Position numbers and translations under genes: made by a program
The notes under the pieces: generated by a model
Database searches by the model: none
Seen by the model: the letters and a program-made list of their open reading frames with translations, nothing else
What the model was told of the DNA's origin: nothing
Shown: in pieces, positions 1 through 35,101 of the stretch
Layout of the letters: the number at the start of each line of letters is the position of its first letter
How positions within the stretch are numbered: the stretch's first letter is position 1
Assembly (NCBI GenBank): GCA_002224055.1
Contig: AZLU01000120.1
Span: 1-36,779 of the forward strand
DNA length: 36,779 bases
Direction: 5' to 3'
Origin: Pezizomycotina sp. ARF18
Taxonomy: Eukaryota; Ascomycota

Positions 1-796
1 CCCTCTGCATTTGAACATCAAACCCAAGTTCTACTGCAAGCGGATTTGGATCTCTGGGTGGAGGAACTACCACGTCGATATTCAACTCAAGTCCCTTTGG
101 AACTGCCGCACTAGGATCCAAAAATATATTCGCATCGTCGGCTCCGAAGCCTCTAGCACCTGTACCCGTTGTTCCTCTTGGAGCTGCGCCTCCTAAGGCT
201 TTTGGAGCAGCTGACTCTGATGATGAAGATTCCGATGATGAAAACGATGACGAGAAGGAGAAGGAGAAGGAACCCGAGCAGCCAACTTATCGCGAAGATG
301 GCACCAAAGGTAAAATCCAACTTTGTACACATTTCTTTGTGTTCGGAAGCTAATAAAATGGGTTATCTAGTTGTCGCTGGAGAGGAAAACGAGGACGTCC
401 TCAAGCAGGCTCGGGTAAAGATGTATCAAATGGAGGGCAAGAGCTGGAAGAAAGAGGAACCGGAACCTTGAAACTTCTTGTTGAAAAGGAGCAAGATGAA
501 GAGAGTGGAGAGGCCGCGGCAGCGGATGATGCTCAAGGCGAGGTACGATATCTCGACTCAAATGAAGAAGAAATATGTATAGGCTGACATATTTTTTGTC
601 CTTACAGCATCATAAACATCAAAAGGCTCGTATTGTCATGCGGCAAGAGGGAGTTGAAAGGTTTTGCTCAACTCCCGAGTTTTTACTGGAATGCTTGGTG
701 AAGAGCCGAAGGACCAATGCTCAAGATCATGACTGTCGACGAGGGCGGAAAATACTCTGGCGTTGCTTAAGGTATGCTATACCAGCTCGAATTTGA
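1..796 (+). CDS. Ran-binding-domain protein (Nup2/Nup50/Yrb2-like), 5' partial
   Basis: Probably a nucleoporin-like or nuclear-transport cofactor that binds Ran-GTP. The first exon enters from the left edge and reads as an FG-containing spacer (SAFG, SGFGSL, SPFGT, KAFGA), followed by an acidic run (DSDDEDSDDEND). An intron at 310-370 (gtaaaa...ctag) and another starting near 544 and ending in ttacag before about 608 separate the RanBD: GEENEDVLKQARVKMYQ, then KSWKERGTGTLKLL, then ARIVMRQEGVERLLLN and VFTGML, all typical RanBD blocks. The frame breaks at about 13 (G), 450 (G), 662-665 (T), 714 (C) and 767 (T); each is repaired by one base in a homopolymer. The 3' end is uncertain: after the repaired VALR the frame stops at 796, but a further intron starting with gtatgc near 772 is possible. 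Which of Nup2, Nup50 or Yrb2 it corresponds to cannot be decided here. Confidence 0.8.
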
Positions 797-2447
797 GGTT
801 CAACTTCTTTTTACTTTAACCGCCAATCTTTCATCAAAGTTGTTTATTCGAAGCTAATATGAAATGACTTGTTTATAAGTTTATCAACGTCAACTTTTCC
901 AAGGAAATATATCAATACTCAAGGGCCTAATAACCGAAGCCTCCTAAGCCTCTCGAGTATTCTTCACTAACCCTCTTTCCTTTCCTCTTTTAGCATGATA
1001 TGGATATCAAACTCTCCGTGTTCCTTACACATATATTTACGTCGGAACGTACTCCGCACTAATAAATACAGGTGTTCGTGGTTGTTTCTTTCTCTCTTTT
1101 CTATCTTCTTCCTTGTTATTTTCCCCTTACGTCTCTGTTTTTCAATCTTGGGTTTCGTCATGCATGCTCTTACAAGTCCATCCCTTATGTTCTCTTTGTT
1201 TTTTTTTTAAATGCAGTGTGATTTCAGTGCGGTCTCGTCTTTGTCACTTCACGTCTCGTTTCATAAACTCATCGTGTTTACCACTGCATTCTTTTTCGTT
1301 TTTTACTCCTTTGAAACAATAATGGTACTCGGAGCCAGTATCCATGTCACGAAAAAAAAATGGTAATTCTAGTAGTATTATTATATGCGAAACTTTCTAT
1401 GGATGTCCACTTTTTCTTTCTTTTTTTTCTTTCTTTTTTTTTCTTTTCTTTTTTTTTCTTTTCTCTTTTTTTTTTTTTTTCTTTCAATTTCCGATATAAT
1501 AGCCTGCCTTTAGTCTAGTCGTCCTAATTCTCATAAAAACAAAGACCAGAACACATACACACATTTGAAATTGACCTTGGTCTGTATTTCTCGTCTAGTT
1601 GAGAACAGCTGCAGCCTAAGGCGTTTCTCCTCTCCGCGGCAGTCCATTGATGCCTCCCTCCTTATATATTAGTTTTGAAAGCTTCTCATCATGCATCACC
1701 ACGATCTACTTAAAACTCTTTTTGCGGAGTGATAAGAACAGTTGTTTTTAGATGGGATGGAAACGCCGACGAACGTACTATAGTCACTCGCTCTTTTTAC
1801 TATTATAGTGATACCGAGTAGTAGAAACTGATTTTCATTTCTCAAATCGTACTGCTAGGGGCTATCTTCTAGGAATTGGGAAATGCGGTAATACTGTTAT
1901 TATTAATTTTCTGAATCTAACTAAGTCTGCGTGCATGTCTTAGTCTCGATCCGCTTCTCTTTATTCACCGAAGCCAAAGGTTCTACACAGTGCTTTAATA
2001 AAAATTGAAAGCATTGCTGGCAAACTCTTCAAATTATAGAATAGAGTCTACATATCCTCTATGTGTATATAATCAACTACGCGCTATTTGAAGAAAAAAT
2101 AAGAGAACTCGAAACATATGTGTAATAAACGTAGAACTAGCTATGGCGCCAGCCACGTATTGCAAAATCTCCTTTTGATATTGGGATCGAGTTTTGGGAG
2201 TACGAACAATCTCGGATTGTAGTTCTACTTCCCTATTTTCATTATTTCATACACATTTTCCGGCGAGAATCATAAGATAGAAATCGGAAATTCAACGGTC
2301 GAGTGGGAAAGAGTCATGCTACGATGTTCTGATACAAGTAGTAATAATTGATATAGAAATAATTATATCGCTTGATGCTTTAGGTAGTAGCAATACATTA
2401 AAAAGGGTATCCATCTAGGGATTCTATTCGAAGGATCCCTGATCGCA
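797..2447. other. Intergenic, between convergent RanBD gene and SMC2
   Basis: AT-rich 3'-to-3' gap of about 1.6 kb. It holds a 76-nt uninterrupted pyrimidine tract (1410-1485) and no open frame with recognisable protein similarity. The start may still contain the last exon of the RanBD gene. No RNA gene or repeat family was recognised. Confidence 0.6.
1410..1485. repeat. 76-nt polypyrimidine tract
   Basis: Uninterrupted run of T and C, mostly T blocks separated by single C residues, in the gap between two convergent genes. Low-complexity sequence; function unknown. Confidence 0.9.
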
Positions 2448-33820: not shown

Positions 33821-35101
33821 TCAGAGTCTATCTGAGAGATCACCACCGGCGACTGAACCGGCAGCAGACGAGGGACCGGAGGGACCAGCACTGTTTCCGT
33901 TGTTGTTCAAAAGGTCATGTACTGCAACTCGAGGCATGGGATGGAAGGAAGAGGCAGTTTACGTTGTGACCCATCGGGCCGGGATAGTATGTCCGCGAGA
34001 CGAGAGTTAGTAATCCGTGCGACAAGTTAGAGGGAACGTTTGTACTGTAAGGATCTGCGACTTCCATCGGAGCGAGGCGGGCATAGGCCGCAGTGTCAGG
34101 TTGCGTATACTCGGGACTGCATCCAAAGTCCAGCTCTCTGGGGAACAGCCTTGGGGAGTGGGCAGGCGTCGCAAGAGGAGTATGGTCTGGCGTCGGCGAG
34201 TACGAGTCGTGAGAAAAGGTAGGAGATGAAGGTGCGGTAGAGACCGGGGAGGTAGCCTGGACCGCTTCACCGCGCGATGGGACAGATACGGATCATCTTC
34301 CTCGTGACTGTGAGATCTAACCATCGCATGGTGATCCCTGCAGGTGGTGGGGTAAGTTGCTCAGCCGAGGCGGCTCGGGATGTTGCCTGTGGTGCGAGTG
34401 ATGGTGGTTTCCCGAGGCTTGGGTGTAGTTGCTGTGGGGTAAGAGATAGCCCTGCCTCTCCTCTCAAGTTCCCTAGATGCAGCAGCCGCAAGCATGTTCA
34501 TATCAGGCAGTTCCTGGAGCCGTTGTCTTGCAACCTGCCGAAGGAAGAGTGAGTACCGTTTGGAGGCGAAGTCTGAATCACGAAATTTGAGTGCGGCGGA
34601 GAAACATTCGGCGACGCAGCAATAGAGGGAGGAGCCGACTTGGACCCAAGTTTGCTGGAGGTGGCATCCATTGTGGCACCTGGATGTCCATTTGGCGACC
34701 GATTCAACTCGTAAGCGTGTGGCGGGCGCCTCTGCTGCGCTAGTTGGTGCTGCGCGTGTGATTGATGGGCGAGGTAGCAGCAGCAGCCATCGCAGCCTGA
34801 TTCTTGTTACTCCGCCTCGAATTAGGGTTTGTGTGTATTCTCGAATGTCGCGTGAGCTCATCAGAACGGCTGAAACGTTTCGTGCACCCTGGAAATTGCA
34901 AGCATGTGGCTTTTTCCCCGGTATGGGTCCTGATATGCCTCGTTTGATGCTCGAGCCTGTGAAAGGCTCGATCGCAGAGCGGGCACTTGTACGGCCTAGG
35001 AAGTTCCGTCCGCTCCGCATATCCTTCATTTCCAGCCATATTCGTCACAGGCTAACATTCATGCCTGGACCGGCGGTTGAAACGGCTCCGATTGCCGCCA
35101 T
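33821..35101 (-). CDS. creA: CreA/Mig1-type carbon catabolite repressor, C2H2 zinc finger
   Basis: DNA-binding repressor of alternative-carbon genes in glucose. Two C2H2 fingers are at the N-terminus: ELPRPYKCPLCDRAFHRLEH with QTRHIRTHTGEK, then FPGCTKRFSRSDELTRHSR followed by IHTNPNSRRSNK, the CreA linker and basic tail. An Ala-rich stretch (AAMAAAATSP) follows, and then SPNVSPPHSN, MLAAAASRELER, RSHSHEEDDPYL with AVKRSR, SPTFSHDSYSPTPDHTPLAT, ILSRPDGSQRKLP and the C-terminal VAVHDLLNN, all as in CreA. It appears to be one exon. The start at 35101 (MAAIGAVSTAGPG) needs one restoration before TNMAGNEG; the next ATG (35039) is the fallback. Several single-base breaks occur, including a paired extra A (34911-34915) and missing base (34898) inside finger 2. 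Expected size is about 430 aa, as for CreA. Confidence 0.95.

What the first reader, a model, noticed from the sequence alone, without database searches (positions are those of the whole stretch)
1..35101. All ten genes carry single-base frame breaks, nearly all deletions in short homopolymers
Protein blocks continue exactly across each break once one base is restored, and the base is always next to a run of the same base. Examples: SMC2 near 2667, 2715, 3017, 3251, 4305-4308, 4427, 5828; GDI near 9227, 9729, 10871; OLE1 near 14248, 14370, 14562, 15125; SAP30-like near 18139 and 18496; NOT2 near 27860. With the restored bases exon phases close to whole codons in SMC2 (1185), OLE1 (467), MRPL47 (271), GDI and NOT2. 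Splice sites are intact and no nonsense substitutions were seen. The simplest reading is an unpolished consensus (flow-based or early long-read data); any annotation of this assembly will wrongly split or truncate genes.
Basis: partly seen in the sequence, partly recalled or inferred. Interest (0 to 1): 0.75.

Follow-up and report, generated by a model that had tools for sequence, protein, structure and literature searches.

The report
Indel errors in an unpolished assembly
The broken reading frames in this fungal window are almost certainly single-base sequencing errors of a low-accuracy long-read assembly, not a biological feature, although they will mislead anyone who annotates its genes.

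Summary
The frame breaks are real in the assembly's text. A frameshift-aware alignment to yeast proteins found 10 breaks in 4.02 kb of window coding sequence (SMC2, GDI), 9 of them missing bases. The window is not special: four chaperonin (CCT) genes on other contigs carry 24 breaks in 5.20 kb, and HSP70 pieces change frame at 21 of 31 junctions. None of 3,073 aligned codons is a stop.

The decisive control is non-coding. Against five other tandem rDNA copies, the copy at a contig end shows 67 deleted, 8 inserted and 24 substituted positions, 23 of the 24 beside another difference. Four of the other five copies show 0-2 deletions in 4 kb, the fifth 8 deletions and 7 insertions. Recoding cannot cause that; thin read coverage can.

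Corrections: the homopolymer claim is overstated. Coding breaks lie no nearer to runs than random codons, and 17 of 67 rDNA deletions hit single bases. Flow-based data are unlikely. Verdict: artefact, low interest.

The parts
2490..6967 (-). SMC2 (condensin subunit) gene, broken into several frames; approximate extent
   Evidence: pieces from different frames align colinearly to yeast SMC2 10-666 (654 bits) and 875-1167 (299 bits)
5827..5828 (-). SMC2 frame break (-1)
4428..4429 (-). SMC2 frame break (-1), weaker reference
   Evidence: 29% identity
4298..4298 (-). SMC2 frame break (-2), weaker reference
   Evidence: 29% identity
   Evidence: 29% identity, coiled coil
3258..3259 (-). SMC2 frame break (-1)
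3016..3017 (-). SMC2 frame break (-1)
2990..2991 (-).
2950..2950 (-).
2766..2769 (-).
2716..2717 (-). SMC2 frame break (-1)
2669..2670 (-). SMC2 frame break (-1)
8525..10899 (-). Rab GDP dissociation inhibitor (GDI) gene, broken; approximate extent
   Evidence: Pfam GDI pieces; 495 bits to yeast GDI
9728..9729 (-). GDI frame break (-1)
9220..9221 (-). GDI frame break (-1)
13914..15420 (-). OLE1-like acyl-CoA desaturase with Cyt-b5 domain, pieces in different frames; approximate extent
   Evidence: desaturase profile goes on at position 198 across a change of frame near 14568-14574 (second piece weak, E 0.0054)
12483..13198 (-). MRPL47-like mitochondrial ribosomal protein gene, pieces in different frames; approximate extent
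   Evidence: MRP-L47, E 7.6e-13 in piece 12483-12692; frame changes by eye
17990..18637 (+). SAP30-like gene, pieces in different frames; approximate extent
   Evidence: SAP30_Sin3_bdg, E 2.9e-10; frame changes by eye
26108..28247 (+). NOT2-like gene; the conserved C-terminal domain seems split between frames; approximate extent
   Evidence: NOT2_3_5_C profile 2-61 of 126 in piece 27667-27954; weak match to yeast Not2
34364..35051 (-). CreA/Mig1-like C2H2 zinc-finger gene; the second finger seems to be read in two frames
   Evidence: zf-C2H2; family name and consensus motif recalled

Best explanation
The breaks are residual consensus errors, mostly single missing bases, in a long-read assembly with too little read depth or polishing for single-copy nuclear DNA. 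The genes themselves are presumably intact in the living fungus. Shown: breaks in unrelated housekeeping genes on several contigs, the same spectrum in one non-coding rDNA copy at a contig end, and few differences among most other rDNA copies. Inferred: that read depth is the cause, and that the platform was PacBio CLR or nanopore (PacBio somewhat favoured, from recall of platform behaviour, because runs of A or T up to 33-34 bases survive and many rDNA deletions hit single bases).
For: Window: 10 breaks in 1,341 codons; other contigs: 24 in 1,732 codons; together 28 of -1, 3 of -2, 2 of +1, 1 of +2. 0 of 3,073 aligned codons is a stop, and all 28 introns used GT donors although GC was allowed too; AG acceptors were required, and a stop was penalised about as much as a shift. 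Identity to yeast is 51-77%. HSP70 pieces: 21 of 31 junctions change frame with no room for an intron, 0 keep frame, 10 may be introns (from the table). rDNA, 4-kb core of six copies: contig-end copy 65 deletions, 7 insertions, 24 substitutions against the majority of six; u1 and u2 2 deletions each, u3 none, u4 2 deletions, 1 insertion, 1 substitution; u5 8 deletions, 7 insertions. Scored against the other five copies, 23 of its 24 substitutions lie within 4 bases of another difference, and C-to-T plus G-to-A changes equal the reverse, 5 and 5. Deletions per base rise from 9.4/kb in single bases to 17.5, 26.1 and 35.7/kb in runs of 2, 3 and 4; longer runs are too few to rank. In nanopore assemblies of ascomycetes, indels in three inspected genes fell with coverage and were gone at 100x (PMC9453082, passages). 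Gene-fragmenting deletions are described for long-read assemblies (PMC12007338, passages).
Against: No reads or second assembly were available, so the shorter sequence was never directly shown to be wrong, and depth was not measured. Coding breaks do not show the claimed enrichment at homopolymers, though placement is good only to a few codons and a deletion shortens its own run. Breaks are as dense inside one contig (CCT4, 130 kb into 303 kb: 7 in 448 codons) as near a contig end (CCT2: 6 in 452), and uneven within the window (SMC2 N-terminal part 1 in 654, C-terminal part 7 in 280). The mitochondrial contig, expected to be deep, is not clearly cleaner: stop-free stretches of up to 505 codons, but one endonuclease looks split, while 2 of 12 nuclear loci also hold stretches of 419 and 327 codons. 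The rDNA evidence for high error rests mainly on one copy.
Confidence: 0.97

Rival explanations
1. Genome-wide translational recoding: ribosomes of this fungus shift frame at these sites, as Euplotes ciliates do (recalled).
For: Breaks occur in all six genes scored (SMC2, GDI, CCT2, CCT3, CCT4, CCT7), and protein on both sides is conserved.
Against: Deletions of the same kind occur in untranslated rDNA at a contig end and are rare in most other copies. Shifts of -1, -2, +1 and +2 are mixed. Contexts of the 28 sites of -1 share no motif that I could see by eye (no motif search was run).
Confidence: 0.01
2. Mass pseudogenisation, for example a decaying second haplotype or dying genome.
For: Each of the six genes scored is broken.
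Against: 0 of 3,073 aligned codons is a stop, 28 of 28 introns have GT donors, identity to yeast is 51-77%. SMC2, GDI and CCT subunits are essential in yeast (recalled). No second copy was found of the two stretches searched, OLE1 and window 1-3500.
Confidence: 0.01
3. Artefact, but from flow-based sequencing (454 or Ion Torrent) rather than long reads.
For: Such platforms also miscount runs (recalled).
Against: A 79.7-kb contig resolves tandem rDNA copies spaced about 10.87 kb apart, and A/T runs reach 33-34 bases. 17 of 67 rDNA deletions hit single bases.
Confidence: 0.03

Closest known systems
Gene-fragmenting indel errors in long-read assemblies (PMC12007338, passages read; Watson and Warr 2019 seen only in its reference list)
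   Same: Single-base, mostly deletion errors that split genes, with a preference for runs.
   Different: The preference for runs is weaker here than those passages describe for nanopore assemblies.
Coverage-dependent indels in nanopore ascomycete assemblies (PMC9453082, passages read)
   Same: Indels inside conserved genes, in and outside homopolymers.
   Different: Platform and coverage of this assembly are unknown; low depth is only inferred from the rDNA comparison.

Membership tests
Long-read consensus error | Indels far exceed substitutions | tested here: met
   67 deleted and 8 inserted positions against 24 substituted, 23 of these within 4 bases of another difference
Long-read consensus error | Present in non-coding as well as coding DNA | tested here: met
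   (4-kb rDNA core; mainly one copy at a contig end, to a lesser degree u5)
Long-read consensus error | Assembly-wide, not tied to one locus | tested here: met
   C120, C54, C24, C139, C53; HSP70 on C208, C3, C303, C49, C70; 10 of 408 contigs sampled
Long-read consensus error | Indel rate rises with homopolymer length | tested here: inconclusive
   rDNA: 9.4, 17.5, 26.1, 35.7 deletions per kb of bases in runs of 1, 2, 3, 4; coding breaks: no enrichment, p 0.43
Long-read consensus error | Fewer errors where read depth is high | tested here: inconclusive
   Four of five other rDNA copies nearly identical; mitochondrial ORFs not clearly cleaner; depth not measured
Long-read consensus error | Accurate reads carry the missing bases | not testable with these tools
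   No reads held
Programmed frameshifting (genome-wide) | Restricted to translated sequence | tested here: not met
   same kind of deletions in rDNA
Pseudogenisation | Nonsense substitutions and damaged splice sites accumulate | tested here: not met
   0 stops in 3,073 aligned codons; 28 of 28 introns GT-AG (only GT or GC donors and AG acceptors were allowed)

The most novel reading that the evidence does not exclude
Some small subset of the breaks might be real and tolerated through ribosomal frameshifting, hidden among sequencing errors. Nothing in the data points to any particular site.
Probability: 0.01. Interest if true: 0.85.

Novelty: not a real feature. Interest (0 to 1): 0.05.

Why it matters
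Only as a warning. At 2.5 (window) to 4.6 (four CCT genes) frame breaks per kb of aligned coding sequence, automatic annotation of this 46-Mb assembly would be expected to split many genes and to invent pseudogenes or introns. Claims of gene loss, novel short proteins or odd splicing from this assembly should be distrusted until it is polished.

Tried and rejected
Rejected: recoding and mass pseudogenisation (see rivals).

Led nowhere: the rRNA family search failed. No second copy of OLE1 or of window 1-3500 was found (one search gave only two matches of about 70 bases in a T-rich stretch), so no haplotype comparison was possible. Mouse desaturase as reference for OLE1 gave no break and a doubtful intron. 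The homopolymer test on coding breaks was negative. Rfam and tRNA scans of the window found nothing.

Mended on the way: one search turned minus-strand loci the wrong way round; one search corrected this, and the alignments used the corrected loci.

Dropped rows: 3 rDNA columns without a majority were set aside. One of the 38 HSP70 pieces stands alone on C10 and gives no junction; 2 of the 21 switches are between pieces that overlap by 325 and 145 bases and are less clean. Breaks from the two weak references are not in the totals.

Full report
What the window is. It is the first 36,779 bases of contig C120 (124,343 bp) in a 46.36-Mb assembly of 408 contigs. The genes (SMC2, GDI, a desaturase with Cyt-b5, MRPL47, SAP30, NOT2, a CreA-like zinc finger) and introns are those of a fungus, probably Pezizomycotina; that placement rests on recall of the zinc-finger and 5.8S sequences. 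No stop-free stretch in the window exceeds 241 codons.

Are the breaks there? I wrote an aligner that matches DNA to protein while allowing GT/GC-AG introns and shifts of one or two bases, and ran it against yeast residues copied from structure-database alignments. For SMC2 and GDI it found 10 breaks in 1,341 aligned codons: 8 of -1, 1 of -2, 1 of +1. Simulated intact genes (without introns) gave 0 false breaks in 11,069 codons, and 52 of 54 simulated deletions were recovered within 15 nt, with one extra call. The other 7 of the 17 sites rest on profile matches that change frame or start late (OLE1 14562 and 14248) or on frame changes seen by eye (GDI 10871, OLE1 14370, SAP30 18139 and 18496, NOT2 27860).

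Is it the window or the assembly? The assembly, as far as sampled. The CCT2, CCT4, CCT3 and CCT7 genes on contigs C54, C24, C139 and C53 have 24 breaks in 1,732 codons. HSP70 hits change frame at 21 of 31 junctions without room for an intron, on C208, C3, C303, C49 and C70; 10 junctions (one of them on C44) may be introns and none keeps frame; 17 of the 21 fit one missing base. Breaks occur near contig ends (C53, C54) and deep inside (C24, 130 kb into 303 kb).

Are the genes dead? No sign of it. Of 3,073 aligned codons none is a stop, and all 28 introns are GT-AG, where GC donors were also allowed but AG acceptors were required. Identity to yeast is 51-77%. The two stretches searched for a second copy, OLE1 and the window's first 3.5 kb, have none apart from two matches of about 70 bases in a T-rich stretch.

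The non-coding control. Contig C189 holds tandem rDNA copies about 10.87 kb apart; four 5.8S genes are visible, and six 5-kb blocks are withheld. Over a 4.0-kb core shared by six copies, the copy at the contig end (within bases 1-7500) has 65 deletions, 7 insertions and 24 substitutions relative to the majority of all six. Copies u1 and u2 have 2 deletions each, u3 none, u4 2 deletions, 1 insertion and 1 substitution, and u5 8 deletions and 7 insertions; 3 columns had no majority. Scored against the other five copies only, the end copy has 67 deleted, 8 inserted and 24 substituted positions; 23 of the 24 substitutions lie within 4 bases of another difference, and C-to-T plus G-to-A changes equal their reverse, 5 and 5. 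rDNA is not translated, so recoding cannot explain this, and natural divergence should bring lone substitutions. A contig end covered by few reads fits; that few reads cover it is inferred.

How far do homopolymers matter? In the rDNA end copy, deletions per base rise from 9.4/kb in single bases to 17.5, 26.1 and 35.7/kb in runs of 2, 3 and 4 (longer runs are too few to rank), yet 17 of 67 deletions hit single bases. At the 28 coding breaks of -1 the longest run nearby is no longer than at other codons (2.50 against 2.47, p 0.43). Since 97.4% of codons have a run of two or more in the same 14-nt window, 'always next to a run' says little. The coding test is weak, because breaks are placed only to within a few codons and a deletion shortens its own run.

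Platform. Resolved tandem copies 10.9 kb apart need long reads. Runs of A or T up to 33-34 bases and many deletions at single bases lean towards PacBio CLR over nanopore; that lean rests on recall of platform behaviour. On the mitochondrial contig C50 (231,088 bp) a COX1 exon plus intron endonuclease ORF runs unbroken for 505 codons and two other endonuclease ORFs for 311 and 242, but one endonuclease appears split between frames, and 2 of 12 nuclear loci also hold stop-free stretches of 419 and 327 codons. So the expectation that deep sequence is cleaner is not settled there.

Literature. Passages of PMC9453082 report indels in three conserved genes of ascomycete nanopore assemblies at low coverage, none left at 100x. 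Passages of PMC12007338 describe gene-fragmenting deletions in long-read assemblies. The phenomenon is well known. Verdict: real in the text of the assembly, artefactual in origin, low interest.

Noticed in passing
G000:C50 (loci L063-L067): Mitochondrial contig of 231,088 bp in which COX1 profile pieces lie at 91811, 136069, 181022, 187475 and 206246 on one strand, so cox1 may span about 70 kb or more, with LAGLIDADG intron ORFs; the first exon appears twice. A 287-kb mitogenome is reported for Tuber calosporum (PMC7756005, start of abstract in the listing).
   Followed up: partly
window 36489-36590: Inverted repeat with 42-nt arms, 98% complementary, and 18 nt between them. Its 30-base outer arm was found nowhere else in the genome at up to 3 mismatches.
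   Followed up: partly
window 34743-35051 (-): The second zinc finger of the CreA-like gene seems to carry a compensating +1/-1 pair about a dozen bases apart, leaving the frame open but the finger garbled (consensus motif recalled).
   Followed up: partly
G000:C189: Six 5-kb blocks of the rDNA contig read N (withheld), which limited the rDNA comparison to a 4.0-kb core.
   Followed up: yes
window, whole: 36 runs of A or T of 10 or more bases (11 of them of 20 or more), against about 0.18 expected from base composition alone; their exact lengths may be unreliable.
   Followed up: no
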